Shown: positions 1 to 40,087, counted from the first letter of the stretch. The stretch is DNA of 64,000 nt from Bacteroidota bacterium (GCA_018669475.1 JABHCC010000117.1:19600-83599); one strand, 5' to 3'. Translations and numbers: made by a program. The notes: generated by a model from the letters alone, not told the origin.

Positions 1-1708
1 AGATGGATTTTATCATCGCAGATACCGACTGAATAGAGAAGTCTTCAAAACTAATAATTCGCTCAGGGCAAGATCCCATGCAAATACCACAACGACGACA
101 ACGGGTAGGATTAGGCAGTGGGGTACCTTTCTCTGTTTCATCGTACATTCCGAAAGGACATTCTTCAGTACAACGCTTACAATCAGTGCATCTCTGCATA
201 TATAACTGAGGGTAGCTTCTGTCGCCCGACCGGGGATGAACAGCACCTCCTTTTTTTACCGACTCAATAAGCTGAACAGCTTTCATTACCGCTCCACGTG
301 CATCAGTCTGAGAATCGCTTATTCCCATTGGAGCCCGCATCGCTCCGGCTGCATATATCCCGGTACGACGCGTCTCATAAGGAAAGCAAATGAAATGAGA
401 GTCACTGAATTCATATTTCAGTTCTGGCAAACCCGGACCTTGTCGATAAGCCAGATTGAGTTCCTTACTGTCATTCGGTACCATGCCTGTAGCCAAAATA
501 ACCATGTCAACAGGAATAGAAATATCCTCATCAATCAAGGATTCGGATACTTCAACGCTTAATTGTTTTTCAGATACGACAACTTTTTCAACTATACCTT
601 TTGTTAGAAAGATTCTGCTGTCTTTTTGCACCTCTTTGTAATACTGTTCCAGCATACCAGGCATTCTGATATCCTTATAAATCAGAAAAACACTTGTTTC
701 AGGATGCTGTTCTCTTATTATCTTTGCCTGTTTGAGTGATGTGCCGCAGCATATCGATGAACAATATGGGAGATGATCCGGATCCCGTGAACCGGCACAC
801 TGTACAAATAATACCGATTTGGGTACCATACCATCTGATCGACGCAATAAAACACCATTTTTCATTGCTTCTTCAGCCTCATGATTGCTTATGATATCAA
901 GTGATGAGCCGTAGCCAAATTTTTCTAATTTATTCGGGTTGTAGGGTTTCCATCCTGTCGCAGCAACAATAGAACCAACTTTAAAAGTGACTACCTGATC
1001 ATTATTGCTGACTGAAACAGTAAAATCGCCGGGTTGTCCGCCGATGGACTCAATTTTTGAGCCTGTAATAACCCGGATGCCCTCGTGATGAATGACCTCA
1101 CTAATTGTTGAATCAATATCATTTTTCTGCTCCTTGACCCAGGGTGCCTTATTTGGGATCGTTTTATTCAGATTCTTCAGGAAACCGCCTAAACTTTCTT
1201 CTTTCTCTATCAAAACAACTGAATACCCAGCATTTGCACCCTCTAATGCAGAAGTTAAACCAGTTATTCCGCCGCCTACAACAAGAATATCCATGCAGGT
1301 GATTTCAGGTATAAAGGCTGTAGGTAGCTGTGTGAATTTCAGTTTAGCCATTCCCATCCTGAGGTAATCTTCAGCCATCATCTGCGTGTCTTCTTCTCCG
1401 GCAGGTTGACAATAAACAACCTGTTCACGAATATTAACACGCTCAAGCTGAATCTCACTGCCAAAGCTGAATTCTGTTGTTTTAATCCGTGGAGAACAAG
1501 CTGCAATCAATACTGATGATCCGGGATTCTCTAAAATACCCTCCCGGATGAGATCAAGACCCTCCTCATGGCATAGCCGATCATGTACCACTACTTTCGT
1601 TACATCTGTGTTTTCACGGGCAATCTTTTCAAGCCCTGAACAATCAAGACAAGTTCCAATCTCGCAACCAGAACAAATAAAAACCGATATAGTATCAATC
1701 ACACTCAT
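1..1708 (-). CDS. qmoB: QmoB, HdrA-like flavin/iron-sulfur subunit of the Qmo complex (partial)
   Basis: This frame is open from an ATG at 1708 to the left edge (569 codons), so the 3' end is missing; it is absent from the ORF track because no stop lies in the window. The N-terminus carries a Cys-rich segment (CSGCEIGTCLDC). An FAD-binding GGGITG motif follows near residue 155, then a second Cys cluster (CSSICC), and near the edge a ferredoxin pair (CTDCKRCTEEC, CRRCGICMGSC). This is the HdrA-like layout of QmoB, which with QmoA and QmoC passes electrons between the quinone pool and APS reductase. Known QmoB proteins usually end in an MvhD-like domain, which would lie off the edge. The start overlaps the qmoA stop (TAATG), so the two are translationally coupled. 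A plain HdrA is the alternative, but the aprBA-qmoA context argues for QmoB. Confidence 0.9.
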   Translation of the reverse strand, partial: MSVIDTISVFICSGCEIGTCLDCSGLEKIARENTDVTKVVVHDRLCHEEGLDLIREGILENPGSSVLIAACSPRIKTTEFSFGSEIQLERVNIREQVVYCQPAGEEDTQMMAEDYLRMGMAKLKFTQLPTAFIPEITCMDILVVGGGITGLTSALEGANAGYSVVLIEKEESLGGFLKNLNKTIPNKAPWVKEQKNDIDSTISEVIHHEGIRVITGSKIESIGGQPGDFTVSVSNNDQVVTFKVGSIVAATGWKPYNPNKLEKFGYGSSLDIISNHEAEEAMKNGVLLRRSDGMVPKSVLFVQCAGSRDPDHLPYCSSICCGTSLKQAKIIREQHPETSVFLIYKDIRMPGMLEQYYKEVQKDSRIFLTKGIVEKVVVSEKQLSVEVSESLIDEDISIPVDMVILATGMVPNDSKELNLAYRQGPGLPELKYEFSDSHFICFPYETRRTGIYAAGAMRAPMGISDSQTDARGAVMKAVQLIESVKKGGAVHPRSGDRSYPQLYMQRCTDCKRCTEECPFGMYDETEKGTPLPNPTRCRRCGICMGSCPERIISFEDFSIQSVSAMIKSI

Positions 1709-2952
1709 TACTCTTCTTTTCTCCTGAATCCAAGCAAGCTAGCTCCTGTAGCACTTTTCACACTTGCAGAAATATCCATTGGCTGAATAGCACATCCGGC
1801 CATTTTTACTCCATCCGGCAGGCTATAATAATCTAAATAACTTCTTTGTTTAGGTAAGAGTCCTTCCACGGCGCTTTGATTTGGAATCAATCCTGTAGCA
1901 AGTACAAGCATATCAGCATCATATGTCAGCTTTTTGCCCGATTCGATATCTTCTGCTACGAACTCAAGTTCCTTATTGTTTGTATTCGTGTTCACCTTGC
2001 TTACCTTGCCTTTTATCAGACGAATTCTTGGATGATCCTGAATTTTACTGAGAAAATCCTCATTTCTGCCTGATACTCTCAAATCAATGTAGTGCAAACT
2101 AACTTCCACTTCAGGTAGAACCTCAACGGCATGAAGTGCTTGTTTTAGGCTGGCTGAGCAGCAAACGCCCGAGCAATATGGTAAATGATTTTCATCACGA
2201 GATCCGACACAATGAATAAATGCTATCTTTTTTGGTGCTTTCTGTGTTTCATGACACAGAATCTTCCCCATGGTGGATCCGTTTGGTGCACTTATCCTTT
2301 CCATCATCAGGTTTGTTAGAATATCAGGATGCTTACCAAATGAATAATCAGGAACTTCAGCAGGATCAAAACCTTCCCAGCCGGTAGCCAGAATTATTGA
2401 GCCGACGATTAGCTCAGTTTCCTTTGGCTTTGCCTCAAGATTGATGGCATCATATCTGCAAGTTTCAAAACAGGCATTGCAGCGATCGTAGAGACAAGAA
2501 GCATCATCAATAACATAACGCTCAGGAAAAGCAAGATCATGGGGATGATAAATAGCTTTTTTACTCGACATGCTGCGGTTGAAAACATCCTTCATCTCAG
2601 CCTTACAAACCTCCACACAATCACCACAAAGAGTGCAATTTGAATTGACATATTCCGGGGCAGAAACAAGCTCAACCGCGAAGCTGTCATCTTGCTCGAA
2701 TACACTTGATACTTCAGTAGAAACCATCAGACTGATTAGTGGATTATCTTTTATTCGTCTGAAATTTATCTCCATGCCACAATAGGGTGGGCACATTTTT
2801 GGAAAATATCGATTCATGCTGATGGCATTTCCACCGATATAGGGAAGTTTCTCAAGCAAAATAACAGAAAGCCCGGCCTCTGCCGCTTCCACAGCAGCCG
2901 TAATGCCCGACATCCCGGCACCAATCACCAATATTGGAAGTCTCTCTAACAT
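1708..2952 (-). CDS. qmoA: QmoA, HdrA-like flavoprotein of the Qmo complex
   Basis: This 414-aa flavoprotein opens with the dinucleotide-binding motif VIGAGMSG and the typical QmoA stretch IGGNAISMNRYFPKMCPPYCG. Two iron-sulfur Cys clusters follow (CTLCGDCVEVC near residue 102 and CLYDRCNACFETC near residue 153), then CSGVCC near residue 261 and a second FAD segment LVLATGLIPN near residue 350. QmoA is the smaller HdrA-like subunit of the quinone-interacting membrane-bound oxidoreductase that serves APS reductase. It lies 56 bp downstream of aprA and overlaps qmoB by one base. The gap to aprA contains a 10-bp tandem repeat. Length and motif order match the family, with no visible damage. Confidence 0.92.
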   Translation of the reverse strand: MLERLPILVIGAGMSGITAAVEAAEAGLSVILLEKLPYIGGNAISMNRYFPKMCPPYCGMEINFRRIKDNPLISLMVSTEVSSVFEQDDSFAVELVSAPEYVNSNCTLCGDCVEVCKAEMKDVFNRSMSSKKAIYHPHDLAFPERYVIDDASCLYDRCNACFETCRYDAINLEAKPKETELIVGSIILATGWEGFDPAEVPDYSFGKHPDILTNLMMERISAPNGSTMGKILCHETQKAPKKIAFIHCVGSRDENHLPYCSGVCCSASLKQALHAVEVLPEVEVSLHYIDLRVSGRNEDFLSKIQDHPRIRLIKGKVSKVNTNTNNKELEFVAEDIESGKKLTYDADMLVLATGLIPNQSAVEGLLPKQRSYLDYYSLPDGVKMAGCAIQPMDISASVKSATGASLLGFRRKEE

Positions 2953-2970
2953 ATTAAAATAAATATTTAA

Positions 2971-3004
2971 AACCGCGCGTCACCGTGCGTAACCCCGCGT
3001 AACC
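2971..3004. repeat. 10-bp tandem repeat between aprA and qmoA
   Basis: About 3.4 imperfect copies of a 10-mer of the form AACCNNGCGT lie between the aprA stop and the qmoA start, ending 18 nt before the qmoA ATG on the transcribed strand. The core resembles the GTGACGC-type arrays at 43657 and 61311. Confidence 0.75.
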
Positions 3005-3008
3005 ATCA

Positions 3009-4898
3009 TCACGCCAAATCAATCACCTCTCTCTTAATCATTTCCCATTCTTCGTCTTCAGGATTCCATTTGCAGTTGGCAAAAACTTTCCATTCTTCTT
3101 TCATTTCGGGAAAATCGGTTCGGAAGTAGTATCCAGGCCAACGTGTTTCCTCTCTGAAAAGAATGGTTCTGATATGCGATTCAGCCTGCCACATCCTGTG
3201 AATATTTTCCCAACACCTCATTAACTCATGGGTATCTTCGGCTGCCAGTTTCGAGGAGTCTTCCTTCATAAAGTCAAGAAAATGCATACCTCGCTCCAGC
3301 ATAGGTTTTGATGTTTTGAATGCTTGTGATGCTCCACCTGCATATTCATCCATAATTTTCTGCAGCCTAAACATAAACATTTGAGGCTTAATGAAATTAG
3401 GATTTATATTAGGATCGTTCGCGTAATCTTTGTGCTCATTATATAATTCCAGCGGACGAAAGGTGTCTTCCTTTAATTGTTGAATGACTGCCTCATCGAT
3501 ATCCGGTTTTTCGTTTGTATCCACTGCAAAAGATACAGCTCCTTTAGCAGCTATTCTTCCTTCTGTAAATGATCCTGAGGAGAATTTATGGCTGGATGCA
3601 CCTGAAGCATCTCCAGCGGCAAATAATCCTTTAACAGTAGTCATATTAGGATATCCCCAATGATATCCCTCCGGCGAAAGATCTTCAGGTCCACTTACCC
3701 AGGCGCCGTTTCCTCCTGAGTGTGAGCCAATGAAATATGGTTCACAGGCTGATATTTCAGATGGAGTCTCTTCAGGTTTTACATTTGTTGAAGCCCATAG
3801 AAGTGCCTGACTAACAGTCATATCCAGAAAGTCTTCCCAGGCTTCGGCTTCAAGTTTTTTCAGTGTGCGTTTGGCAGTCTTTGGATCTTCAGACTCATCA
3901 ACAATTTTTTGAATAGCCTCATCGGTGCGCATGTAAATCGGGCCTTTTCCTTCATTTACTTCGAGCATCATGAGGTGGTTTCGTAAATTAGCAGGAGTGG
4001 GCTTTGCTGCTCCGTATGGTAACCATTTTTGTAGTTCATCTTTCCTGGTCTCCATATAATCTTCACCCAATGCATTAGTCGCTTTTGATTTAAACAAGAG
4101 AAACCAGGCTCCAACCGGTCCATAGGCATCTTTAAATCGCACAGGAACGAAACGGATTTCCTGACAGGTCATCTCTGCACCTGCCTTTAAAGTGAAATAT
4201 GTACTGGCTCCTGAGTTGAAAGGAGGGTACCATGAACGTCCGAGTCCTTCACCAACTGATTTGGGTTTGAAAACATGCACTGCACCACCCAAAGCAGTTA
4301 TTACACTATTTGCAAGAAATACATAGAATTTCTTCTCCCGGATACTGAAGCCTGTAGCTCCAATACAGCGACCGTCTTTCATCAGAGGTTGTGTGATGAA
4401 TATACGCTCAAAGTACTGACCATCATCGCCTAGCTCTGCCAGTGCTTTTTTTGCTGCTTCTGCTACAATAGTTTTGTAAGATTCCCCATTGATCATTATC
4501 TGCCAACGTCCTTCATGTACGTATTTCCCATTCTCATCTTTCCAGATGGGAAGTCCCCATTTTTCAAAGAGATGAACAGATGAATCTACATGCCTGGCAA
4601 TATTTGCAACCAGATCATCACGGGCAATCCCCATCAGGTCATTCTTGACGTATTGAACATATTCAGACAGAGTATTATCACCATCTTTAAGTCCAACATA
4701 CTGGTTAATAGCTGATAAGCCCATGGCAACAGCACCACTGCGATCCATTGCTGCTTTGTCAACAACAGTGACCGATTTATTATGCTTTTTTGCCCAGTGA
4801 GCTGCTTCAAAAGCTGCTCCGCATGCTGCCATGCCACCACCCAAAATGAGAATGTCTGTCCGTACAATGACGGTTTCGTAACTATTGGTAATTTCCAT
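3009..4898 (-). CDS. aprA: Adenylylsulfate (APS) reductase alpha subunit AprA
   Basis: The 629-aa product is the FAD-carrying catalytic subunit of dissimilatory APS reductase, which interconverts APS and sulfite plus AMP in the cytoplasm. The N-terminal FAD motif (ILILGGGMAACGAAFEAA) is followed by RSGAVAMGLSAINQYVG. The active-site segment has RFVPVRFKDAYGPVGAWF with the conserved Arg, and GSHSGGNGAWVSGPEDL holds the conserved His. The length fits AprA (about 610-660 aa), and fumarate reductase or L-aspartate oxidase is ruled out by these AprA-specific blocks and the adjacent aprB. It starts 5 nt after the aprB stop. The sequence alone does not say whether it works in the reductive (sulfate to sulfite) or oxidative direction; Qmo genes occur with both. 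Confidence 0.95.
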   Translation of the reverse strand: MEITNSYETVIVRTDILILGGGMAACGAAFEAAHWAKKHNKSVTVVDKAAMDRSGAVAMGLSAINQYVGLKDGDNTLSEYVQYVKNDLMGIARDDLVANIARHVDSSVHLFEKWGLPIWKDENGKYVHEGRWQIMINGESYKTIVAEAAKKALAELGDDGQYFERIFITQPLMKDGRCIGATGFSIREKKFYVFLANSVITALGGAVHVFKPKSVGEGLGRSWYPPFNSGASTYFTLKAGAEMTCQEIRFVPVRFKDAYGPVGAWFLLFKSKATNALGEDYMETRKDELQKWLPYGAAKPTPANLRNHLMMLEVNEGKGPIYMRTDEAIQKIVDESEDPKTAKRTLKKLEAEAWEDFLDMTVSQALLWASTNVKPEETPSEISACEPYFIGSHSGGNGAWVSGPEDLSPEGYHWGYPNMTTVKGLFAAGDASGASSHKFSSGSFTEGRIAAKGAVSFAVDTNEKPDIDEAVIQQLKEDTFRPLELYNEHKDYANDPNINPNFIKPQMFMFRLQKIMDEYAGGASQAFKTSKPMLERGMHFLDFMKEDSSKLAAEDTHELMRCWENIHRMWQAESHIRTILFREETRWPGYYFRTDFPEMKEEWKVFANCKWNPEDEEWEMIKREVIDLA

Positions 4899-4903
4899 GT
4901 TTT

Positions 4904-5341
4904 TCAGAGTTTTGCTAATTCATCTAATCCATTTGAAGCTGGCTCGGTTCTTAAAAGCGGGCTTTTAAGGTCATCACTTGATGATTCGAATCCGGCATCT
5001 GGTACTGAACTGCCTTCAGGTATAGTACGGGTTTTGAAACGGAATCTTTTCAGCTCACCATCTCTGAATTTTACCGACCACATTATGGTATCAGTACTTC
5101 TTAATGGTTGAACAACCCCGCCCAATGGCATGAAATCGGCATATCCACGTATCTCAATGGCTTGGGTCGGACAAATTTTAACACAATTATAGCACTCCCA
5201 ACACATATCAGGTGCCCGGTTATAGGCCTTCATCTTCTCTGTGTCAAGAACCATCAGGTCATTAGGACAGATATACATACAGGCTGTACGATCGTGTGAT
5301 TTACATCCGTCGCATTTCTGATTGATCACAAAACTTGGCAT
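4904..5341 (-). CDS. aprB: Adenylylsulfate (APS) reductase beta subunit AprB
   Basis: This 145-aa ferredoxin-like subunit carries two [4Fe-4S] clusters that feed electrons to the FAD of AprA. The first Cys set is C10, C13, C21 and C25 (CDGCKSHDRTACMYIC) with the AprB-type insertion between Cys 2 and 3. The second is C47, C50, C53 and C57 (CWECYNCVKIC). The C-terminal half (GVVQPLRSTDTIMWSVKFRDG) matches the AprB tail that wraps AprA. It is the first gene of the visible operon. A 115-bp gap separates it from the upstream lipoprotein gene, so the operon promoter probably lies there; I found only a weak TAnnTTTG-like match. Confidence 0.95.
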   Translation of the reverse strand: MPSFVINQKCDGCKSHDRTACMYICPNDLMVLDTEKMKAYNRAPDMCWECYNCVKICPTQAIEIRGYADFMPLGGVVQPLRSTDTIMWSVKFRDGELKRFRFKTRTIPEGSSVPDAGFESSSDDLKSPLLRTEPASNGLDELAKL

Positions 5342-5456
5342 TCGATTAACTTTTGAATTATGCGAATAAAAATAACAATTCCCTTCAATGACTCGGTAGT
5401 GAGAGGCTTAAATGAAAGGGTTCTAAATAGGGACCTTTGGTCTTATATTTTTGCTG

Positions 5457-6464
5457 TCACCAATCTGGGTTGCTTACGAATTTCAGGTTTTTCGTGAATC
5501 GGCCTGTTCGCAGAGAGTCCATGGCTTTGTAGGAGAGTTTTAAATGATTGAAACGAACGGTGAATTTCGATGCAATAACTCCAATCGCTCCATCAATATT
5601 TCCTTTCGGATCTTTTTTAATGTCTGATGCCGGATGCATTTCTTTGAGATAAGTGGTGAGCTCCTCATCAGCCGCCGTAATGCTGGCAATCAATTCAAGA
5701 GGTTTGCGATAAGAGATGCTCTTATTGTTGGGAATCCGGGTGCCCAGGAAGGCATAAACAGGATCAGAATAGATCTGGAATTGGTATCTGTCTCTTTCCC
5801 ATCTTAGCTCGTTCTTCTGTATATGTCTGGAGTATTGCACCTTCCGGATGCTGGATTCGCCATCTTCAGTAAGCTCCTCGAAAACCAATTTAAAGGCAAT
5901 CTCATATGAAGCAGCGTTTTCAGATGGAAACCAGGAGAAAGTGAGAGGATCTTCATAAAAGTAAATCCTTTTTGCCTGAGAGTTTGGATAAATAATTTTC
6001 AGATCCTTGAATAATTCTGTTTCAGAGATTATAGGTTTTTCAACTCCAGGCAGTGTAATTCGAATTGTATATAATCCGGCAGGTAAAATTCTTTTTAAAG
6101 AATAAACAGGATTAGGACTTTCAGGGAAGACTCCTTCATTCCTGTGAGATGGACTCTCAAGAAATTGAATATCAAGATTGCTTCCTGTCTGAGCCAGGCT
6201 TATTTCAGGGGAATTATAGTACAGATTGCCAGGATTTTGCATTAACTTCATGGCATCCTCTTCACCCGAAAAACTTTTGGTAACTTTTATAGAATGTGCC
6301 GTGTCAGATGCATCGAAAATGCCATAAATAACAGGAATTGCTTCACCTGGATATACCAGGCTAACTTCATCGGAGCACGATGTAAACATGCTTGCAAAAA
6401 ATGCAAGCAAGACAAGATCACAGCATCTGAACCCAAACCTAAAAAACAAACGATTCACCAACAT
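5457..6464 (-). CDS. DUF4249-like outer-membrane lipoprotein
   Basis: The 335-aa product begins with a hydrophobic stretch ending in the lipobox FTSC, so it is a predicted lipoprotein. The segment just after it (PVIYGIFDASDTAHSIKVTKSFSG) is typical of DUF4249 proteins of Bacteroidota, which usually accompany TonB-dependent receptors; none is visible here. The upstream gene on the same strand is another large lipoprotein, with a 54-bp gap filled by a CA-rich 6-mer repeat. Function is unknown. The start is the first ATG; a later one would cut into the signal peptide. Confidence 0.7.
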   Translation of the reverse strand: MLVNRLFFRFGFRCCDLVLLAFFASMFTSCSDEVSLVYPGEAIPVIYGIFDASDTAHSIKVTKSFSGEEDAMKLMQNPGNLYYNSPEISLAQTGSNLDIQFLESPSHRNEGVFPESPNPVYSLKRILPAGLYTIRITLPGVEKPIISETELFKDLKIIYPNSQAKRIYFYEDPLTFSWFPSENAASYEIAFKLVFEELTEDGESSIRKVQYSRHIQKNELRWERDRYQFQIYSDPVYAFLGTRIPNNKSISYRKPLELIASITAADEELTTYLKEMHPASDIKKDPKGNIDGAIGVIASKFTVRFNHLKLSYKAMDSLRTGRFTKNLKFVSNPDW

Positions 6465-10533: not shown

Positions 10534-10605
10534 AGTTATCAGTTATCAGTTATCAGTTATCAGTTAAAAAAAAGTCCGGGGTCCTTGGTCTGGAGTCCGG
10601 GGTCC
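10534..10605. repeat. Composite heptamer array: AGTTATC units then GTCCNNG units
   Basis: Four and a half copies of AGTTATC (10534-10566) are followed by an A-run and about 4.5 units of GTCCGGG/GTCCTTG/GTCTGGA (10574-10605), both with exact 7-bp period. The array fills the gap between the pdxB stop and the gnd start. On the gnd transcript the GATAACT units end 9 nt before the ATG. Confidence 0.85.
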
Positions 10606-13876: not shown

Positions 13877-13885
13877 TTTAGGAAA

Positions 13886-13914
13886 GTTCTCAGTTCTCAG
13901 TTATCAGTTTTCAG
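13886..13914. repeat. AGTTCTC/AGTTATC/AGTTTTC-type heptamer array
   Basis: Four 7-bp units (GTTCTCA, GTTCTCA, GTTATCA, GTTTTCA) lie 9 nt upstream of the HAD gene start codon on the minus strand. It is the same family as the arrays at 10534, 57871 and 59422. Confidence 0.8.
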
Positions 13915-17625: not shown

Positions 17626-18357
17626 ATGTTAACTTTATTCAGACGGGAGATTAACAGTTTTTTTAGCTCACTAACAGCCTATGTTGTGATTGTGGTCTTC
17701 CTGGTTATGAACGGATTGTTTTTATGGGTTTTCCCAGGAGAATTCAACGTCATAGATTCAGGTTATGCCTCTCTTGACAGTATGTTCATTTTAGCTCCAT
17801 GGTTATTCCTGTTTCTGGTACCTGCGGTAACCATGAGACTTTTTTCAGATGAAAAACGATTGGGAACAATTGAACTGCTCTTTGTTCGTCCTTTGACAGA
17901 TTTGCAAATAATTATGGCAAAATTCCTGTCTGGATTAGTTCTGGTAATCCTTTCATTATTACCTACTTTGATTTACTACCTCACTGTTTACCTTATGGGG
18001 AATCCGGTAGGGAATATTGATAGCGGTGGATTCTGGGGATCATTTATAGGACTATTTTTTCTGGCTGCTGTTTACGTGTCAATTGGATTATTTACTTCTA
18101 CTATAACTGAAAACCAGATTGTCTCCTTTATTCTGGGTGTACTGGCATGTTTCCTCGTCTTTCTCGGCTTTGATTATGTTGGTGGATTGGGATTATCAGG
18201 AGGTGTTCAGAATTTTGTTGAAGGTTTAGGACTTTCTTACCATTACAATTCTATGTCGAGGGGGGTGATTGACACACGTGATATCATTTATTTCCTATCT
18301 GTTATTTCAATATTTGTGGTCTTTTCAAAAATTGTTCTTGAAAGCAGAAAATGGTAA
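17626..18357 (+). CDS. gldF: Gliding-motility ABC transporter permease GldF
   Basis: The 243-aa protein has about six membrane segments and the ABC-2 permease phrase AVTMRLFSDEKRLGTIELLFVRPLTDLQIIMAKF. With GldG and the ATPase GldA it forms an ABC transporter linked to gliding in Flavobacterium; many non-gliding Bacteroidota keep gldFG. gldA is not in the window. It overlaps gldG by 7 nt. The call rests on the permease domain together with the adjacent GldG. Confidence 0.88.
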   Translation: MLTLFRREINSFFSSLTAYVVIVVFLVMNGLFLWVFPGEFNVIDSGYASLDSMFILAPWLFLFLVPAVTMRLFSDEKRLGTIELLFVRPLTDLQIIMAKFLSGLVLVILSLLPTLIYYLTVYLMGNPVGNIDSGGFWGSFIGLFFLAAVYVSIGLFTSTITENQIVSFILGVLACFLVFLGFDYVGGLGLSGGVQNFVEGLGLSYHYNSMSRGVIDTRDIIYFLSVISIFVVFSKIVLESRKW

Positions 18358-20108
18358 GACAGACAAAGAAAATCATGAAAAAGAAGCAAGTTAAAACACA
18401 AAATATTATTCAGCTCGTATTATTATTGGCTGTTGTGATTCTGATAAATCTGATATCCCATTTTGTATATCACCGTTTTGATCTTACTGAGGAGAAGAGA
18501 TATACACTGACACCTAGCACCAAAAACTTCCTGACTGAAATGACGGATGTCATTTATATCAAAGTTTATCTCGAAGGAAAAAATCTGCCCGGAGGCTTCA
18601 GAAGATTGCAAAAAGCGACAAAGGAACTGATGGATGAATTCAAAGTGAATGCAGGTGCAAATCTTGAATTTGAATTTATCAATCCATCAGAAAGTCCTGA
18701 TGGAATCACACGGAATGAAGTTTATCAACAATTAGCGATGGATGGGCACATATATTTTAATGTGCAAGTTGAAGATCGTGATGGTGGTACATCCACTATT
18801 CCGGTTTTTCCTTCAGCTATGGTAAGCTTCAGGGCACATGGTCAGCAGCTTGATCGCCCGGTAAATTTATTTCAGGGTTCAAGTACAGGCCAGGTTAATG
18901 ATGCTATAATTAACAGGGCAGTTGAAAATCTGGAGTATGAGTTTGTTTCTGCGATGAGGGTTGTTACCCGCGAAATGGTGCCCAGTGTGGCAATGTTACA
19001 AGGACATGGTGAGTTGGATGAACTGGAGTCATTGAGTTTGTTTAATGCTCTGTCGATGTTCTATCGTGTTGAGCGCGTAAATATGAATATGCAATTAAAT
19101 TCATTAGCAGATTTTGATGCAATACTTGTAGCAGATCCTGATTCCAGCTTTCCCGAACGCGATAAATTTATTATTGACCAGTTTATAATGCATGGAGGAA
19201 AAGCCCTGTGGTGTGTGGATGCAGTAAAAGTTCAGATGAATGAACTGGCTGATTCAAATGAAATTATGAGCAGGTCAAATGCTATAAACATCGGAGATAT
19301 GCTATTTGACTACGGTGTTAAGATCAATTCTTCACTGATCCAGGATTTGCAATGTGCTTTTATCCCAGTTTACCCGGATGATGGTGCAGGAGTTACTCTT
19401 GAACAGCAAATGGTACCATTTTTCTATTTACCTCTGATTACACCCCGTCAGGATAATCCCATTACCCGCAATCTTAATATGTTGAAGATGGATTTTGTTA
19501 GTCCGATTGATACAATTGGTGATAATCCTAATATTAGAAAAACTGTTTTATTGAACTCTTCTAATCGTAGCAGAATCTTGAGGCAGCCCGTACGTGTTGC
19601 ATTAGACGTATTCAGTGAAAAACCTGATGTTAGCCGCTTTCCGATGGAGAATCTTCCGGTCGCGGTATTGTTGGAGGGGAAATTTCCGAGTTTTTACCAG
19701 AACAGGCTACCTGAGCAATGGGTGAATAATGAGTTATACGAGGTTCTTGACGAGAGTAAAGTTGCTACAAAGATGATAGTAATCAGTGATGGCGATATTG
19801 CAAGAAACTTCGTTAGCTATCAAAATGGGCAAGCACAGGCCAACCGTTTGGGTTGGGATCGATATATGGGACAAATGTTTGGGAATAAGGATTTTCTTTT
19901 GAATTGCATGAATTATTTGTTGGATGATGAGGGGGTTATGGGAGTAAGGTCGAGGGAAGTACAGCTCAGGCTCATGCAATATGAAGAAATAACTGACCAC
20001 AGGCTCAAATGGCAGCTGATTAATGTAATTATACCAGTTGCCCTTGCCATGTTTTTCGGGATACTATATACCTGGCGAAGAAGAAAAAAGTACGGAAGGA
20101 AAATATGA
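18351..20108 (+). CDS. gldG: Gliding-motility ABC transporter auxiliary protein GldG
   Basis: The 585-aa product has one N-terminal membrane helix (IIQLVLLLAVVILINLISHFVY), a long periplasmic region with the phrase FDLTEEKRYTLTPSTKNFL typical of GldG, and a C-terminal helix (VIIPVALAMFFGILY) followed by a basic tail. The periplasmic part contains an ABC_transp_aux-like domain (VAMLQGHGELDE, ILVADPDSSFPERDKFIIDQFIMHGGKALWCVD). It partners GldF, with which it overlaps. An in-frame second Met at residue 9 could also serve as start. Confidence 0.9.
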   Translation: MVRQTKKIMKKKQVKTQNIIQLVLLLAVVILINLISHFVYHRFDLTEEKRYTLTPSTKNFLTEMTDVIYIKVYLEGKNLPGGFRRLQKATKELMDEFKVNAGANLEFEFINPSESPDGITRNEVYQQLAMDGHIYFNVQVEDRDGGTSTIPVFPSAMVSFRAHGQQLDRPVNLFQGSSTGQVNDAIINRAVENLEYEFVSAMRVVTREMVPSVAMLQGHGELDELESLSLFNALSMFYRVERVNMNMQLNSLADFDAILVADPDSSFPERDKFIIDQFIMHGGKALWCVDAVKVQMNELADSNEIMSRSNAINIGDMLFDYGVKINSSLIQDLQCAFIPVYPDDGAGVTLEQQMVPFFYLPLITPRQDNPITRNLNMLKMDFVSPIDTIGDNPNIRKTVLLNSSNRSRILRQPVRVALDVFSEKPDVSRFPMENLPVAVLLEGKFPSFYQNRLPEQWVNNELYEVLDESKVATKMIVISDGDIARNFVSYQNGQAQANRLGWDRYMGQMFGNKDFLLNCMNYLLDDEGVMGVRSREVQLRLMQYEEITDHRLKWQLINVIIPVALAMFFGILYTWRRRKKYGRKI

Positions 20109-32572: not shown

Positions 32573-33433
32573 TTGCCTTATGTCGTTATCCGAATCCTCG
32601 GGATAGGATTATATGTGCGGGTTACGACCACCTTACATTCCGCAAGGACTTCTATAATCGTATTTACATCTATCGCAACTATAGGAATGGCTACTGTGTT
32701 GGTTGGGATATTTACCGAACCGGATGTGCGTATTTGGTGGTGGTTGGCTGCAATTGTTTTTGATATGCTTGCCGGACTTGTTGCCGGGCGTCTTGAGGGT
32801 TAGTCGGTACATCCAAAACATTTTGCAGAGCGACACGGTTTGATCATTATAATAGCTCTTGGAGAATCATTGATTGTTGCAGCAAGTGCTATAGCCACTC
32901 AGGGAATAACTACGGAGCTAATTATTGTGGGTGGATTGACTTTATTAATTACCTGTCTTCTTTAGTGGAGTTATTTTGCCTGGATTATAGAATATCTTGA
33001 AGATTATTTTTCTCAAAAATCCGGAGGGGATCAAAATGCTATGGCAAGAGATGTGTATAGCTTAATGCACTTTCCAATTGTAGCCGGTATAATTGGTATT
33101 GCCGTTGGATTTGAAATAATCTTATCCCATCCACATGATCTTCTGACTGTCCCTTTAGCTGCGGCAGTAGGTGGGGGATTTGTACTATTTATTGGATTTA
33201 CCGGTGCAGCAGTATTCAGGTCAAGCGGACTGTTCCTTGTTCCCCGAACCGCTATTCTTATTTTAACGTGTATAGGTGTAGTTTTTTCTGTTGGACACCC
33301 ACCTCAATTAATACTATGTGTGCTATCCGCAAGCCTGGCCCTGCTGATTATCATTGAATGGAAAAAGTGTCGTCACTTTTATCTGAATATAGTTAAGGAC
33401 AGGAGAACAATCATATTAATACGTAGAATTTAA
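32558..33433 (+). pseudogene. Low-temperature-requirement protein A (LtrA-like) remnant
   Basis: One continuous reading frame with two internal TAG stops (32801 and about 32963) encodes RFALPYVVIRILGIGLYVRV, HFAERHGLIIIIALGESLIVAAS and a membrane-rich C-terminus (FPIVAGIIGIAVGFEIILSHP). HFAERHG...IALGES is the LtrA signature. By comparison with the family, both TAGs look like former Trp codons (TGG). The N-terminal third is missing, cut at the junction with the kinase remnant. The two ORFs in the track (32558-32803 and 33041-33433) are pieces of this gene. Confidence 0.82.
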
Positions 33434-33620
33434 AGCAAATGATCTTGAAAAAATTAAGAAGTTTTATACTAACTCTTTTGATTGGACTTTTACAGATTTG
33501 GTAGATGTTAAACCAATAGGAGCTGAAGCGCATATTGATTCATCAATAGGTCCATCTATTGACTCGGTTGGATTGGAAAGAGCAGCGCATGTGTTCGCTT
33601 TGCCAGAGCTGAATGTGTAG
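33423..33620 (+). pseudogene. VOC (glyoxalase/bleomycin-resistance-like) fragment
   Basis: Overlapping the end of the LtrA remnant in another frame, 65 codons encode VEFKANDLEKIKKFYTNSFDWTFTD, the typical first strand and helix of a VOC-family protein. The following residues (VDVKPIGAEAHIDSSIGPSIDSVGLERAAHVFALPELNV) do not look like VOC and end in TAG, suggesting a deletion fusion. No start codon or complete domain remains. Confidence 0.55.
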
Positions 33621-33953
33621 TACCAGCATTGCCCATTTACAATAAAGGGAAGATTAGAGTTAATAAAAGGATTGAGGACTTTTTAATCCATTTTAGCCGT
33701 ATATTATTGCTAATTAACATAAAGTAAAGGTGTTTTTGTTCTTGAAAACTGCCTTAGGTTTTGTTTTTTAATAAACTTATCAAAAATTCAAATAAAAGGT
33801 TAACTCCAAACTGAATGGACATCTGAATGTTAGAGTGCTCCCACTCTTTGATATGATCAAACCATCTCTTATCTTTAGGCTACACTGGGGGATTACTATT
33901 GACAAAAAACAGAATGTTTATGGTAATAGATATTTTTATTCAAATCCTTTGAT
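33621..33953. other. AT-rich leader region of the hybrid kinase, with two palindromes
   Basis: No gene is seen. Two adjacent inverted repeats lie about 100 nt before the kinase start: AGAGTG-CTCC-CACTCT (33832-33847) and TTTGAT-ATG-ATCAAA (33847-33861). The motif CTTTGATATGAT from the second recurs over the start codon (33947-33958). Confidence 0.4.
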
Positions 33954-36446
33954 ATGATGAGTTATTCAGATCTTACAAAAGAAGAGTTGATTGCTATAGT
34001 TGAGAAACTTGAACGAGAGAGAAAAGATCTTAGAGATAGACCAGAATTAACTTTTGAGCAAGCTGCTGTGGGTATAGCGTTTGTTTCAGGCAAAGGGGAA
34101 ATCATAAAGGTCAATAATAAATTCGCACAATTATTTGGCACTGACCCTGTAGATATGATTTCCAGTAATGTAAATGATATAAGCCATCCAGATGATCCAA
34201 ATATAGATAATAGTGAAGTACGTAAAGTTTGGACAGGAGAATTGGATGAGTTGGAAATAAAAAAGAGATATATCAAAAAAGATAAATCTGTATTTTGGGC
34301 TAACCTTACATTATCCCTTGCAAAGTCTGCTAAAAATGAACCAAATTATTTTATTGCTGTTTTGCAAGATATCACGGAAAAGAAATCTGCCGAAGATAAT
34401 TTTTTTAAAGAAAGACAGTTCACTGATAAATTAATAAATAGCCTGCCAGGGATTTTTTATTTGTACTCAATTGATGGCAATGAAACTCAATTAATAAAAT
34501 GGAATAAGAATCATGAGAAAGTAACTGGCTATTCAACAGAAGAATTAAGGGGGATGACAGTTTTTGATTTTTTCTCCAAAAAAGAATCTCCAGCAATAAG
34601 AGCCGCTTTAAATAATATAATAAAGAAAGGGAAGGTTGCTATAGAAGCTAATCTCAAGCTAAAAAGCGGTGAACTAATTCCTCATTATTTCGAAGGACAT
34701 TTGTTATCAGATATTGATGAATATTTCTTTTTAGGAGTTGGCTTGGATATTTCAGAGCAGTATAAAGCCCAGAAAGTACTCAGGAAAAGTGAAGAAAAAT
34801 ATGCTGCTGTGGTTGAAAACAGTAACGATGGTATTGTTATACATAAAGCAGGTAGGGTTATTTATGTGAATCCTATTGTTGAGAAGGAATTGGGTTATGA
34901 TCCAAAAGAAGTCATTGGAAAAGACTTGACGGATTTTATAGCTCCTGAATACCAAAAAATTGTTGCACAAAGGGTTATGGATCGACTTTTGGGTAAATCA
35001 GTACCCAAAATTACAATTGTTGATTTGGTACGAAAAGATACAAGCCGACTGTCAGTAGAATTAAACACTTCCTTAATTAAATATGAAGGGGAGAAAGCAT
35101 TTCTGGTTACCATACGTGATATTACTGAAAGAAAAATTGCCGAAAGCAAACTAAGGGAAAGTGAATCTAAATTAAAGGAGGCACAAGAGATAGCAAAAAT
35201 TGGGCATTGGGTTTTAGATCTTGTCGAAAATTCATTAGAGTGGTCTGATGAGGTATACCGGATATTTGGATTAAAACCACAGGGATTCAAAGCTACTTAT
35301 GAAGCTTTTCTCGACAACATTCATCCTGACGACAGAGATATGACTAATGAAGCTTATAGCGACTCTCTGGTTAACAAGAAACCTTATGAAATAGTGCATA
35401 GGCTAAAACTGAAGGATGGAACTATCAAATATGTTATTGAAAAATGTGAAAGCACATTTGATAAAAATGGCGAACCGCTCCGTTCTGTTGGGACTGTGCA
35501 GGATATCACAAAACAAATAGAATTTGAAAATAAACTAAAAGCGAGTGAAGAGAAATTCAGACGCATATTTGAAACAACTCAAGATGGTTATTTGCTTGCT
35601 GATATTGAAGGCAATTTAGGTTCTGCAAATCCTTCAGCTATTAGAATTCTGGGATATAATAATGAGGAAGAGTTAATTGGCAAATCCTTAGGTCGTGATA
35701 TTTATACAGACGATAAACAAAGAGAAAAGACCTTAAAAGAGTTATTTATCAATGATAAGGTTCTCAATAGAGAGCTAATATTTAGGAAAAAAAATAAGGA
35801 TGAAATATATGTAGAGTGTAATATTCAGGCAATTAGAAATACTCAAGGTGAAGTTATTGCAACAGAAGGTACCTTCAGAGATATTACTAAGCGTAAACTG
35901 GCAGAAGAAGAATTAAAAAAATATCAAAACAATCTTGAAGGACTTGTTAAAGAAAGAACCATAGAGCTGGAAAAATCTCATAAAGAAAATTTAAAACTAT
36001 CTAAAGCTATTGATCACAGTTATGCTACAGTGGTGATTACTGATAAGGATGGAAATATTGAATATGTAAATCCAAATTTCACCAGAACTACCGGATATTC
36101 AGCTGATGAAGCAATGAATCAGAATCCAAGAATCCTGAAATCCAACCAAATGTCACAATCACATTATAAAGAAATGTGGGATACAATACTGGCGGGCGAA
36201 ATATGGAAGGGTGATTTTATAAACAAAAAGAAAAATGGAGACATCTATTGGGAAAGTGCTATAATCTCCCCTTTTTATAATGAAAAAAATGAAATTACTC
36301 ATTTTGTGGCGGTTAAAGAGGACATAACCAAAAGAAAAAGAGCCGAAGAAGAACTTGAACTATTTAAAACTTTTCCGATTCATCAACTGAAGGATTTGGC
36401 ATGGCTGATCTGGATGGTAATATTCTTTATCAAAATAATGCATTAA
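33954..36446 (+). CDS. Multi-PAS sensor, N-terminal part of a frameshifted hybrid histidine kinase
   Basis: The 830-aa frame encodes a short coiled start (TKEELIAIVEKLERERKDL) and about six PAS/PAC units, each ending in the linker type DITERKxAE, for example near residues 140, 275, 395, 520, 645 and 810. A PAS_3-type unit reads IGHWVLDLVENSLEWSDEVYRIFG. There is no signal peptide or membrane helix, so it is cytoplasmic. After AEEELELFKTF the frame goes out of register and ends in a nonsense tail (PIHQLKDLAWLIWMVIFFIKIMH). The expected next PAS unit continues in the -1 frame as the following ORF. Treat the two ORFs as one broken gene of about 1,650 codons. Confidence 0.85.
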   Translation: MMSYSDLTKEELIAIVEKLERERKDLRDRPELTFEQAAVGIAFVSGKGEIIKVNNKFAQLFGTDPVDMISSNVNDISHPDDPNIDNSEVRKVWTGELDELEIKKRYIKKDKSVFWANLTLSLAKSAKNEPNYFIAVLQDITEKKSAEDNFFKERQFTDKLINSLPGIFYLYSIDGNETQLIKWNKNHEKVTGYSTEELRGMTVFDFFSKKESPAIRAALNNIIKKGKVAIEANLKLKSGELIPHYFEGHLLSDIDEYFFLGVGLDISEQYKAQKVLRKSEEKYAAVVENSNDGIVIHKAGRVIYVNPIVEKELGYDPKEVIGKDLTDFIAPEYQKIVAQRVMDRLLGKSVPKITIVDLVRKDTSRLSVELNTSLIKYEGEKAFLVTIRDITERKIAESKLRESESKLKEAQEIAKIGHWVLDLVENSLEWSDEVYRIFGLKPQGFKATYEAFLDNIHPDDRDMTNEAYSDSLVNKKPYEIVHRLKLKDGTIKYVIEKCESTFDKNGEPLRSVGTVQDITKQIEFENKLKASEEKFRRIFETTQDGYLLADIEGNLGSANPSAIRILGYNNEEELIGKSLGRDIYTDDKQREKTLKELFINDKVLNRELIFRKKNKDEIYVECNIQAIRNTQGEVIATEGTFRDITKRKLAEEELKKYQNNLEGLVKERTIELEKSHKENLKLSKAIDHSYATVVITDKDGNIEYVNPNFTRTTGYSADEAMNQNPRILKSNQMSQSHYKEMWDTILAGEIWKGDFINKKKNGDIYWESAIISPFYNEKNEITHFVAVKEDITKRKRAEEELELFKTFPIHQLKDLAWLIWMVIFFIKIMH
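36372..36384 (+). other. Frameshift site in the hybrid kinase
   Basis: The first frame reads TTT AAA ACT TTT CCG ATT. Adding one base in the four-T run restores FKTFSDSSTEGFGMADLDG, which matches the sister PAS units (FKMFADGSGEGFGMADLDS). This is a one-base loss by mutation or by sequencing. Confidence 0.8.
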
Positions 36447-38917
36447 ATAATTTGCTTGAAGAAAATGAAACGCCAGTTGGGGAAAGTCTCTTAAAAAACT
36501 ATTCTAAAGAAAACCAGGAATTATTTAGTGGTATAATCAAACAATTAATTGAAACAAGTCATTGGAAAGGAGAAATAGAAGTTCTTAGTAAGAATGGCAA
36601 TGCTGTTCTTACCCTACAAACTTTCTTTCTGATAAAAGATTCAAATGGTAATCCATCACAAATAGCAGCAGTAATCACAGATATTACTGAACAAAAAAAA
36701 GCAGAAGAGGAACTCGAATCGTTTAAAATGTTTGCTGATGGTTCTGGTGAGGGATTTGGTATGGCTGATTTAGATTCCAATATTCTATACATGAATAGAA
36801 GATTACTTGAATTATGTGAGCTTAATGAAGTTAGTCCAGAGGATAGTTTTCTAAGATTCTACACAAAAGATTCCATCGATGCTATTAATAATATTGTCAT
36901 GCCGGAACTAAAATCCAAGGGGCAATGGCAGGGAGAACTGGAATTTCTGACAGCGAATAATAATCTTTTAATAACTTACCACAATTTCTTCCTGATTAAA
37001 GATGAAAATGGACAACCATACAGAATGGCAGCCTTAGTTATGGATATGACAGATAGAAAAAGATCAGAAGAAGAGTTAAGAACATTTAAACGATTTGCAG
37101 AATCATCCAATGAAGGAATTGGAATAGCTGATATGAAATCCAATATCCTTTATATGAATAAGAGACTTCTTGAATTTGCTGAAATTAAGAATGTATCTGA
37201 ACATGTATCTTTTTTTAAATATTATCAGGGTAAAGACAGGGAGATCATAACAAAATTGATATTACCCGCTCTTAACACCAAAGGTCAATGGCAAGGGGAA
37301 ATTGATTTTACTTCAGTAGAAGGAAAGCTTACACCTACCTATCACAATTTTTTTGTGATTAATGATGAAAATGGAAAACCCTATAGAATTGCAACTATAA
37401 TTACTGATATTACGCAAACCAAGAAAATTGAATCGGAACTTAAGAAATCAAAAGAACAGGCAGAAGAAGCTAACAGATTAAAAAGTACATTTTTATCCAA
37501 TATGAGTCATGAGATTCGTACTCCGATGAATGCTATTTTGGGATTTTCTGAAATTTTATCAAAAGGCTTAAAAGACCGATCTCAATTAGATTATCTTTCT
37601 TCAATACAAAGCAGTGGTAAAACTCTATTGCAATTAATAAATGATATCCTGGATTTGAGCAAGATTGAATCAGGGAAACTGGATTTTAGTTATCAGCCTG
37701 CCAATATCCAGAATCTCATACAGGAAACAATAAATATGTTAAAGGTAAAATCTGATGAAAAAGATCTGCAAATAAACACAGTGATCTCAAAAGACTTACC
37801 AGGAATATTAAATATTGATGAGTTGCGTATAAAACAAGTTTTGATAAACCTTATAAGCAACGCTATAAAATTCACTGATAAAGGATATATCGAAGTTGAA
37901 ATTGGATGCCTGAATAAGAAGAAAGAACATCTTGATTTGTTTATTAAAGTAGAAGATACCGGCATAGGTATATCTAAAACAAATCATCAGAAAATCTTTC
38001 AGGCATTTGATCAAATCGAAGGAAAGGATAGTAAGAGATTTGAAGGAACCGGATTAGGACTTGCCATTACAAGACACCTTGTTACAATAATGAATGGAAC
38101 AATTGAGTTGGAAAGTGTAATTGGTAAAGGCAGTATTTTCACTATTGTATTGAACAAAGTAAAGTATAATGAAGCTGATGTTGAGTTTGAAGATAGTATT
38201 GACTTTGATCCTGATTCACTTGAATTTGAAGAATCAAGCGTATTGATTGTTGATGATATAAAAACCAACAGAGATGTATTAATAGGGTATCTAAGTAGTT
38301 ATAACATCAAAATTATTGAAGCTGAAAATGGAAAAGAAGCTTTAACAGCAATAGAAAAATACAAACCTGATTTAGTATTTCTTGATTTACGAATGCCTGT
38401 GATGGACGGTTATGAAGCACATAAGACGATCATGAAAAATCCCAAATGGTCACAAATTCCGATCATTGCAATTACAGCCTCCGCATTTGACAAAGATGAG
38501 AGAAAAATAATTGCTTTAGGATTCAGTGGTTACATTCGTAAACCGGCAAGCTTAAACGAAATCCTGAGCTGTTTAATGAAACACCTGAAACATACTGCTG
38601 AAGTCAAACATGAAGAAATTGCAGCAGAAGTCATCTTTGAGTTAATTGATAAACTGGATGAAGTTTTATTGGAAATTGACAAAAAAGCTATGCCTGTGTG
38701 GGAAGGAATAATGAAAATCAGAAAAATGAAAGATGTGCTTCTTTTGTCAGAACTTATAGTAGAAATTGGAAAAAAATATAACGCAGAATCATTAATAGAT
38801 TACGGGAATGAATTACATCTAGCAACTCAATCGTTCAATATCGATAAAGAATTGAAATTGATCCAACAATTTCCTGATTTTGTTAAAAAATTAAATTCTT
38901 CAAGCAATGGAAGATGA
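36401..38917 (+). CDS. Hybrid histidine kinase, C-terminal part of the frameshifted gene
   Basis: The 838-aa frame has the rest of a PAS unit (MADLDGNILYQNN), then two further PAS units of nearly the same sequence (GMADLDSNILYMNRR, GIADMKSNILYMNKR). HisKA follows (FLSNMSHEIRTPMNAILGFSEIL, phospho-His), then HATPase_c (N-box NLISNAIKFTDKG, DTGIGISKTN, GTGLGLAITRHL) and a receiver (VLIVDDIKTNRD, acceptor Asp in LVFLDLRMPVMDGYE). A helical C-terminal tail of about 100 aa ends it. The ATG at 36401 lies inside a PAS domain, so it is unlikely to be the native start. It overlaps the next gene by 11 nt. Confidence 0.87.
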   Translation: MADLDGNILYQNNALNNLLEENETPVGESLLKNYSKENQELFSGIIKQLIETSHWKGEIEVLSKNGNAVLTLQTFFLIKDSNGNPSQIAAVITDITEQKKAEEELESFKMFADGSGEGFGMADLDSNILYMNRRLLELCELNEVSPEDSFLRFYTKDSIDAINNIVMPELKSKGQWQGELEFLTANNNLLITYHNFFLIKDENGQPYRMAALVMDMTDRKRSEEELRTFKRFAESSNEGIGIADMKSNILYMNKRLLEFAEIKNVSEHVSFFKYYQGKDREIITKLILPALNTKGQWQGEIDFTSVEGKLTPTYHNFFVINDENGKPYRIATIITDITQTKKIESELKKSKEQAEEANRLKSTFLSNMSHEIRTPMNAILGFSEILSKGLKDRSQLDYLSSIQSSGKTLLQLINDILDLSKIESGKLDFSYQPANIQNLIQETINMLKVKSDEKDLQINTVISKDLPGILNIDELRIKQVLINLISNAIKFTDKGYIEVEIGCLNKKKEHLDLFIKVEDTGIGISKTNHQKIFQAFDQIEGKDSKRFEGTGLGLAITRHLVTIMNGTIELESVIGKGSIFTIVLNKVKYNEADVEFEDSIDFDPDSLEFEESSVLIVDDIKTNRDVLIGYLSSYNIKIIEAENGKEALTAIEKYKPDLVFLDLRMPVMDGYEAHKTIMKNPKWSQIPIIAITASAFDKDERKIIALGFSGYIRKPASLNEILSCLMKHLKHTAEVKHEEIAAEVIFELIDKLDEVLLEIDKKAMPVWEGIMKIRKMKDVLLLSELIVEIGKKYNAESLIDYGNELHLATQSFNIDKELKLIQQFPDFVKKLNSSSNGR

Positions 38918-40046
38918 AAAATATAAGATCCTGGTCGTGGACGACATTTCCAAAAACGTTCAGTTATTGGCTAATTTGCTTTCCGAAAAAGGCTATAGTG
39001 TTGAATTTGCATTAAACGGACCTGATGCCATACGGTTGGTTTCTTCTGAAAATTTCGACCTTATTCTGTTAGATATTATGATGCCGGGAATGGATGGTTA
39101 TGAGGTTTGCAAAACAATTAAAAAGGATGAAAGGATTAAAGAAATACCCATCATTTTTCTAACTGCCAAAACAGATATTGAAAGCATTGAAAAAGCATTT
39201 GAATCTGGGGGAATAGATTATGTCAGCAAACCGTTCAATACTAATGAATTATTAGCTCGAGTTAAAACACATGTTGAGCTTAAAAGAAATAAAGACAGGC
39301 TGATAGGAGTTAATAAATGGCTGGAAGAAGAAGTTTTAGCCAGAACCGAAGAGCTTGTCGATGCCAAAGAAAGGGCAGAGGAGTCAGATCGATTAAAATC
39401 GGAATTTCTTGCTTCAATGAGCCATGAAATCAGAACTCCCTTAAACTCCATAGTAGGTTTTTCTGGCCTGATTGCAGAAAGTGCTGCGGATACTGAATGC
39501 AAGGGGTTTTCAGAGATTATCAACCGGCAGAACGAATTGCTTTTGAAAATCATAGATGATATAATTGATTTAGCAAAAGTTGAATCTGGAAAACTTGAAA
39601 TCATTGTAAAAGAATTTGAGCTTAATGAATTTGTAAACAATATGTTTCAAACGTTTAGACGGGAATGTCAACCTTACGTTAAGCTGATTCCAAAAGTAGC
39701 TTTTGACAGATTTATCGTGAATACAGATCCGGATCGACTTAAACAAATTTTCTCAAACTTAATGTCCAATTCAATAAAGTTCACAGAAAAAGGACAAATT
39801 GAAATTGGGTACACCCTTGATAAACAAAACAAAGTAATCTTTCATGTATCCGATACTGGGATTGGAATCCCTGAGGATAAATGTGACATAATATTTGGTC
39901 GATTTGCTAAGCTCGATAAGTTTACCCAGGGAACTGGTCTTGGACTAGCAATTGTAAAGAACATCATCGAAGGCATGGAAGGAAAAATATGGATGGAATC
40001 TGAAATTGGAAAAGGATCAACTTTCTATTTTAGTTTACCTGTGTGA
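38907..40046 (+). CDS. Receiver-histidine kinase
   Basis: The 379-aa cytoplasmic protein has an N-terminal receiver (KILVVDDISKNVQLLANLL; acceptor Asp in LILLDIMMPGMDGYEVC; Lys in DYVSKPFNTNELLARV). A short coiled linker (VLARTEELVDAKERAEESDRLK) leads to HisKA (FLASMSHEIRTPLNSIVGFS) and HATPase_c (NLMSNSIKFTEKG, DTGIGIPEDKCD, GTGLGLAIVKNII). It overlaps the hybrid kinase by 11 nt and probably receives phosphate from it. No dedicated output regulator is visible downstream, only a decayed DUF885 gene. Confidence 0.92.
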   Translation: MEDEKYKILVVDDISKNVQLLANLLSEKGYSVEFALNGPDAIRLVSSENFDLILLDIMMPGMDGYEVCKTIKKDERIKEIPIIFLTAKTDIESIEKAFESGGIDYVSKPFNTNELLARVKTHVELKRNKDRLIGVNKWLEEEVLARTEELVDAKERAEESDRLKSEFLASMSHEIRTPLNSIVGFSGLIAESAADTECKGFSEIINRQNELLLKIIDDIIDLAKVESGKLEIIVKEFELNEFVNNMFQTFRRECQPYVKLIPKVAFDRFIVNTDPDRLKQIFSNLMSNSIKFTEKGQIEIGYTLDKQNKVIFHVSDTGIGIPEDKCDIIFGRFAKLDKFTQGTGLGLAIVKNIIEGMEGKIWMESEIGKGSTFYFSLPV

Positions 40047-40087
40047 ATTCAGCAAATGCCGGACAGTTCTTAGGTTAAAATTACTAA

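What the first reader, a model, noticed from the sequence alone, without database searches (positions are those of the whole stretch)
1..5341. Dissimilatory APS reductase and Qmo operon in a Bacteroidota chromosome
aprB, aprA, qmoA and qmoB are intact as far as visible and tightly packed (5-nt, 56-nt and 1-nt-overlap junctions). Every flanking gene is ordinary Bacteroidota. Apr/Qmo is the core of dissimilatory sulfate reduction and reverse sulfur oxidation, and I know of no characterised Bacteroidota that uses it. A tandem repeat of the style found elsewhere in the window lies inside the operon, which argues against a chimeric assembly and for residence in this genome.
Basis: partly seen in the sequence, partly recalled or inferred. 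Interest (0 to 1): 0.87.

Follow-up and report, generated by a model that had tools for sequence, protein, structure and literature searches.

The report
Orphan APS reductase–Qmo module in Bacteroidales
A group of uncultured environmental Bacteroidales bacteria carries the complete middle step of the sulfate-respiration machinery as one inherited gene block, but none of the enzymes that normally come before or after it, so it probably handles sulfite rather than breathing sulfate, and the gene can no longer be read as a sign of sulfate reduction.

Summary
In detail: aprB, aprA, qmoA and qmoB are intact at the stated coordinates. The contig extends 19.6 kb to the left, and there qmoB is completed and followed by qmoC and ordinary genes. 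Assembly or binning error is excluded: the same aprBA-qmoABC block, in the same order, occurs in about 35 Bacteroidales genomes from many studies (25 of 393 sampled; 12 families), and AprA, AprB, QmoA and QmoB each form one Bacteroidales clade. All iron-sulfur cysteines and active-site residues are kept.

None of the carriers has ATP sulfurylase Sat or any siroheme sulfite reductase (Dsr, CysI, Asr), whereas all four non-Bacteroidales AprA carriers tested with the same searches have both. So this is neither sulfate respiration nor reverse-Dsr sulfur oxidation. What does accompany it is the assimilatory APS reductase CysH: 16 of 16 carriers versus 61% of non-carriers (p = 0.0006), often within 1-10 kb. 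CysD is present in 76%.

Best reading: a quinone-linked APS/sulfite interconverter, probably oxidising cytoplasmic sulfite to APS (direction inferred, about 50%). The rival is menaquinol-driven APS reduction feeding sulfonate synthesis. New variant of a known kind. Interest 0.62.

The parts
4904..5341 (-). aprB, APS reductase beta subunit, 145 aa, two [4Fe-4S] clusters
   Evidence: TIGR02060 196 bits over cut-off 136, PF12139; all 8 cluster cysteines invariant
3009..4898 (-). aprA, APS reductase alpha subunit, FAD, 629 aa
   Evidence: TIGR02061 881 bits over cut-off 642; aligns end to end with A. fulgidus 1jnr, E 7e-235; N74, W234, R265, H398 and eight other recalled or published active-site positions identical (residue roles PMC2211403 for N74, W234, R265, H398, R317)
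1708..2952 (-). qmoA, HdrA-like flavoprotein, 414 aa
   Evidence: HdrA2 model 315 bits; syntenic, 43-56% identical to other Bacteroidales QmoA; conserved cysteines kept
1..1708 (-). qmoB, N-terminal 569 of 713 aa; the rest, then qmoC (353 aa), lie left of the window at contig C51:19166-19599 and 17946-19007 (L002)
   Evidence: score 47; weak
5342..5456 (.). gap between aprB and the next gene upstream (putative lipoprotein, no Pfam match, 5457-6464), presumed to hold the operon promoter
   Evidence: no composition break here (tetranucleotide profile of the operon fits the contig, r 0.707)

Best explanation
This is a complete, functional-looking dissimilatory-type APS reductase (AprBA) with its menaquinone partner complex (QmoABC). 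It was acquired once by an ancestor within Bacteroidales and kept as a stand-alone module after, or without, Sat and Dsr. Shown here: gene identity, intactness, shared ancestry, absence of Sat and of siroheme sulfite reductases, association with CysH. Inferred: it interconverts APS + 2 e- with sulfite + AMP in the cytoplasm, exchanging the electrons with the menaquinone pool. Inferred with less certainty: the net direction is oxidative. Sulfite that accumulates in cells with no sulfite reductase (made by CysH or released from sulfonates) is converted with AMP to APS, passing electrons to menaquinone. APS is then returned to sulfate by CysDN running backwards where CysDN exists, reused by CysH/CysC, or hydrolysed by an unidentified enzyme. 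It would act as a sulfite safety valve with a small respiratory gain.
For: Identity and integrity. Complete operon with qmoC. Same order aprB-aprA-qmoA-qmoB-qmoC in all Bacteroidales loci long enough to show it. One clade in each of four trees (SH-aLRT AprA 100, QmoA 98, QmoB 100, AprB 96). No Sat and no NIR_SIR in 24 handles (22 distinct genomes) against 4 of 4 non-Bacteroidales carriers with both, and none in 25 carriers of a 393-genome draw. CysH in 16/16 carriers vs 136/222 non-carriers, Fisher p = 5.7e-4; cysH within 10 kb of aprA in 10 of those 16, plus G371 and G301. Nearly all full-length CysH copies checked keep CC..CxxC and the catalytic ECG[ILM]H (the exceptions are cut by a locus or contig end). 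Oxidative direction: CysH already covers APS to sulfite, so a second enzyme in the same direction would be redundant; and six carriers (G062, G093, G184, G334, G371, G396; two of them 98-99% complete) lack CysD as well as Sat, leaving AprBA as the only evident maker of APS.
Against: No dedicated sulfite-producing enzyme was found beside the operon. A glycyl-radical enzyme 9 kb away in G313 proved to be hydroxyproline dehydratase, not a sulfite-lyase. With CysH in the same cell, AprBA working oxidatively could make a futile cycle unless regulated. Co-presence with CysD is not above background (19/25 vs 231/368, p = 0.20). Published comparison finds no structural difference that separates APS reductases of sulfate reducers from those of sulfur oxidisers (PMC2211403), so the sequence cannot give the direction.
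Confidence: 0.5

Rival explanations
1. Reductive use: menaquinol-driven reduction of APS (made by CysDN) to sulfite, which is built into sulfonates such as cysteate for sulfonolipids instead of being reduced to sulfide.
For: In the window's genome cysH-cysD-cysN stand in a row with a PLP enzyme of the threonine synthase / cysteate synthase superfamily (L136:5486-9911; the match to solved cysteate synthase 9k3c is 49 bits). There is no sulfite reductase to use the sulfite. Bacteroidota make sulfonolipids from phosphoserine via cysteate synthase (PMC11211663).
Against: CysH already does this step. The PLP enzyme is under the cut-off of both the cysteate and threonine synthase models (124 of 325 bits; 170 of 303) and has no close copy in the other fetched carrier loci. 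Six carriers lack CysD.
Confidence: 0.25
2. Ordinary dissimilatory sulfate reduction or reverse-Dsr oxidation, with sat and dsr merely missing from incomplete assemblies.
For: AprBA-QmoABC is the core of that pathway; the carriers are mostly MAGs; a study of Zodletone spring lists Bacteroidota among sulfate reducers (PMC9040765).
Against: About 35 distinct carriers, many 95-99% complete, all lack both families, while the same searches find both in 4 of 4 non-Bacteroidales AprA carriers.
Confidence: 0.04
3. Decaying remnant of a lost sulfate-reduction pathway, no longer under selection.
For: Patchy: 25 of 393 genomes of the order; absent from the other members of the window's family sampled. 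QmoA diverges quickly (43-56% within the clade).
Against: No internal stops in any AprA copy; 238 of 245 outgroup-invariant AprA columns and all cluster cysteines kept; intact across 12 families.
Confidence: 0.06
4. Thioredoxin-to-menaquinone shuttle: CysH reduces APS to sulfite with thioredoxin, AprBA-QmoABC reoxidises sulfite + AMP to APS and gives the electrons to menaquinone, sulfur acting only as a carrier.
For: A stoichiometrically closed reading of the genotype CysH + AprBA-QmoABC without Sat, CysD or sulfite reductase, seen in G062, G093 and G184; cysH-aprBA linkage in one of these, G093.
Against: No precedent known to me; most carriers do have CysD; missing CysD could partly be MAG incompleteness.
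Confidence: 0.05
5. Chimeric assembly or binning error.
For: The operon ended at the window edge and lacks sat/dsr neighbours.
Against: Same block in many independent MAGs; Bacteroidales clades in four trees; composition fit; host-type heptad repeat inside the operon; host-type genes on both sides.
Confidence: 0.01

Closest known systems
Sat-AprBA-QmoABC branch of dissimilatory sulfate reduction (Desulfobacterota, Zixibacteria, Acidobacteriota and others)
   Same: Same AprBA and QmoABC proteins and residues, often with aprBA near qmoAB; nearest outgroup AprA are Zixibacteria/FCB-type
   Different: No Sat, no DsrAB or any siroheme sulfite reductase in any Bacteroidales carrier
Chlorobia and 'Ca. 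Thermonerobacter'/Kapabacteria (Bacteroidota in the wide sense) Apr-Qmo systems
   Same: AprBA with QmoABC in the same superphylum
   Different: Those have sat with aprBA and a Dsr set (PMC6338057, PMC10591310); an Ignavibacteria and a Kryptoniota AprA tested here fall outside the Bacteroidales clade
Dsr-independent AprBA of SAR11 and SAR202 (sulfite from organosulfur compounds)
   Same: AprBA without Dsr and, in SAR202, without sulfite reductase; proposed sulfite oxidation (PMC5864207)
   Different: SAR202 has Sat (PMC5864207); the SAR11 enzyme is of Apr lineage I, whose membrane link does not involve Qmo homologues (PMC2211403); here Qmo is present and Sat absent
Assimilatory APS reductase CysH
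   Same: Same chemistry, APS to sulfite; co-occurs and is often a neighbour
   Different: Unrelated protein, thioredoxin-dependent, not quinone-linked

Membership tests
Dissimilatory APS reductase AprBA | AprA and AprB over curated family cut-offs | tested here: met
Dissimilatory APS reductase AprBA | FAD/APS active-site residues and eight [4Fe-4S] cysteines | tested here: met
Dissimilatory APS reductase AprBA | Catalyses APS/sulfite interconversion | not testable with these tools
   needs enzyme assay
QmoABC complex | QmoC over cut-off; QmoA and QmoB HdrA-like; all three present and contiguous with aprBA | tested here: met
Dissimilatory sulfate reduction pathway | ATP sulfurylase Sat (PF01747) | tested here: not met
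Dissimilatory sulfate reduction pathway | DsrAB (PF01077) | tested here: not met
Reverse-Dsr sulfur oxidation | DsrAB and Sat | tested here: not met
SAR11/SAR202-type AprBA sulfite oxidation | AprBA without Dsr | tested here: met
SAR11/SAR202-type AprBA sulfite oxidation | Sat to turn APS into ATP + sulfate | tested here: not met
   CysD in 19 of 25 carriers
SAR11/SAR202-type AprBA sulfite oxidation | Enzymes releasing sulfite from organosulfur compounds | not tested
   only one candidate checked, and rejected
Assimilatory sulfate reduction to sulfide | CysDN and CysH | tested here: met
   window genome G000:C60
Assimilatory sulfate reduction to sulfide | Siroheme sulfite reductase | tested here: not met

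The most novel reading that the evidence does not exclude
In part of the clade the cell has two opposite APS/sulfite enzymes (CysH and AprBA-QmoABC) and no ATP sulfurylase or sulfite reductase, so APS and sulfite act as a catalytic redox couple that moves electrons from thioredoxin to menaquinone: a sulfur-carrier shuttle rather than a sulfur pathway.
Probability: 0.05. Interest if true: 0.9.

Novelty: new variant of a known kind. Interest (0 to 1): 0.62.

Why it matters
aprA is widely used as a marker for sulfate reducers and sulfur oxidisers in sediments; here is a clade spanning 12 Bacteroidales families in which aprA (and the whole Qmo complex) cannot mean either, so surveys based on aprA or qmo will misassign it. 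It also poses a concrete biochemical question: what makes or uses APS and sulfite in cells that hold a quinone-linked APS reductase but no Sat and no sulfite reductase? The tight link to CysH makes that question testable.

Tried and rejected
Chimera or misbinning: rejected (trees, relatives, composition, repeats). Missing sat/dsr through incompleteness: rejected by about 35 genomes with a positive control. A glycyl-radical enzyme near the operon in G313 as a sulfite-lyase: NCBIfam says trans-4-hydroxyproline dehydratase (1254 bits). The PLP enzyme next to cysHDN as a proven cysteate synthase: below both cut-offs and with no close copy in the fetched carrier loci, so only a candidate. Association with CysD: tested, not significant. 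Negative association with sulfite reductase: 0/25 vs 26/368, not significant, because the order as a whole rarely has one.

Full report
OBSERVATION. AprA and AprB pass the curated NCBIfam cut-offs (881 of 642 bits; 196 of 136), and QmoA and QmoB are HdrA-like as expected. The window is bases 19600-83599 of contig C51 (83,599 bp) in a genome 95.4% complete with 0.93% contamination. Reading left of the window, qmoB is completed (713 aa) and followed by qmoC (353 aa; NF038018 356 of 300 bits). The operon ends there and is followed by an endonuclease/exonuclease/phosphatase family protein, a weak GH43-like protein and a sulfatase. The operon is therefore aprB-aprA-qmoA-qmoB-qmoC, without sat.

NOT AN ARTEFACT. 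One scan of named genomes returned AprA loci at 74-81% identity almost entirely from Bacteroidales/Bacteroidota MAGs of many studies; in every one long enough the five genes stand in the same order. A draw of 393 genomes of the window's order has AprA in 25, in 13 genera and 12 families. AprA, AprB, QmoA and QmoB each form one Bacteroidales clade (SH-aLRT 100, 96, 98, 100), with several families grouped inside it; neighbouring outgroups are Zixibacteria and other FCB-type genomes. In the contig the operon's tetranucleotide profile fits the rest as well as any segment (r = 0.707), and a heptad array AGTTGTC x5.3 between qmoB and qmoC is of the kind scattered between the other genes.

FUNCTIONAL BY SEQUENCE. 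AprA aligns end to end with the solved Archaeoglobus enzyme. N74, W234, R265 and H398, named as FAD/APS residues in PMC2211403, R317 at the channel entrance, and seven further positions I recalled are all identical. All eight AprB cluster cysteines and the conserved QmoA/B/C cysteines are kept; of 245 AprA columns invariant in outgroups, 238 are kept. No carrier AprA copy has an internal stop.

THE PATHWAY IS MISSING. In the window's genome there is no PF01747 (Sat) and no PF01077 (DsrAB, CysI, AsrC). Among 24 carrier handles (22 distinct genomes, since two are duplicates), none has either, while four of four non-Bacteroidales AprA carriers searched in the same calls have both. In the 393-genome draw, Sat occurs in 1 and NIR_SIR in 26, none of them among the 25 carriers. 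Because sulfite reductases are rare in the whole order, the absence in carriers is not itself an association (0/25 vs 26/368, p = 0.39). It does mean that carriers cannot run sulfate respiration or reverse-Dsr oxidation by any known route.

WHAT GOES WITH IT. All 16 carriers in a 238-genome draw have CysH, the thioredoxin-dependent APS reductase, against 136 of 222 non-carriers (Fisher p = 5.7e-4). Related genomes inflate this figure somewhat. The CysH copies checked keep their cluster and catalytic motifs unless cut by a locus or contig end. In 10 of the 16, cysH lies within 10 kb of aprA, in six families and with different intervening genes; chance for one genome is about 0.5%. CysD is in 19 of 25 carriers (231 of 368 others, not significant); G062, G093, G184, G334, G371 and G396 lack it. 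In the window's own genome cysH lies elsewhere, in a cysH-cysD-cysN row with a PLP enzyme of the threonine/cysteate synthase superfamily (L136).

MECHANISM. Shown: a complete quinone-linked APS reductase without Sat or sulfite reductase. Inferred: it interconverts APS and sulfite + AMP against menaquinone. Direction: CysH already covers reduction, and in CysD-less carriers AprBA is the only evident source of APS, so I favour sulfite oxidation to APS as a valve or minor energy-yielding step (0.5). The main rival is menaquinol-driven APS reduction for sulfonate synthesis (0.25). A thioredoxin-menaquinone shuttle through the APS/sulfite couple is the most novel reading not excluded (0.05).

RELATION TO KNOWN SYSTEMS. 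Apr/Qmo in Bacteroidota in the wide sense is known from Chlorobia and Kapabacteria with Dsr sets (PMC10591310, PMC6338057). AprBA without Dsr is known from SAR11 and SAR202, with Sat in SAR202 (PMC5864207). A Zodletone study listed Bacteroidota as sulfate reducers (PMC9040765); one carrier here (record Zod_Metabat.810, L029/G115) seems by its name to come from that spring and has neither Sat nor a sulfite reductase by these searches, but I could not see which genomes that paper counted. I found no paper describing AprBA-QmoABC in Bacteroidales without Sat and Dsr; the library holds open-licence papers only. Hence: new variant of a known kind.

Noticed in passing
window 43657-43795, 61309-61427; L002 303-446, 6025-6084: Arrays of 12-15-bp repeats sharing the core GGCGTCACG / CGTGACGCC, up to about 11 copies, on both strands of one contig.
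   Followed up: no
window 10534-10566, 13885-13914, 57871-57900, 59422-59453; L002 8106-8137, 15599-15665, 19016-19052: Many intergenic 7-bp tandem repeats (AGTTNTC and others) across the contig, including one between qmoB and qmoC; apparently a habit of this genome.
   Followed up: partly
window 33000-41000: Lower GC (0.31-0.36) than most of the contig (about 0.40-0.43), with AT skew; possibly a separate acquired region.
   Followed up: no
L136:5486-6811 (genome contig C60): PLP enzyme of the threonine/cysteate synthase superfamily placed right after cysH-cysD-cysN; candidate cysteate synthase for sulfonates.
   Followed up: partly
order-wide: Most sampled genomes of this order that have CysH (137 of 152) lack any siroheme sulfite reductase: sulfate is apparently activated and reduced to sulfite but not to sulfide.
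   Followed up: partly
G024: The only genome of 393 in the order with a Sat-type ATP sulfurylase; it has cysH about 1 kb away on contig C221 but no AprA.
   Followed up: no
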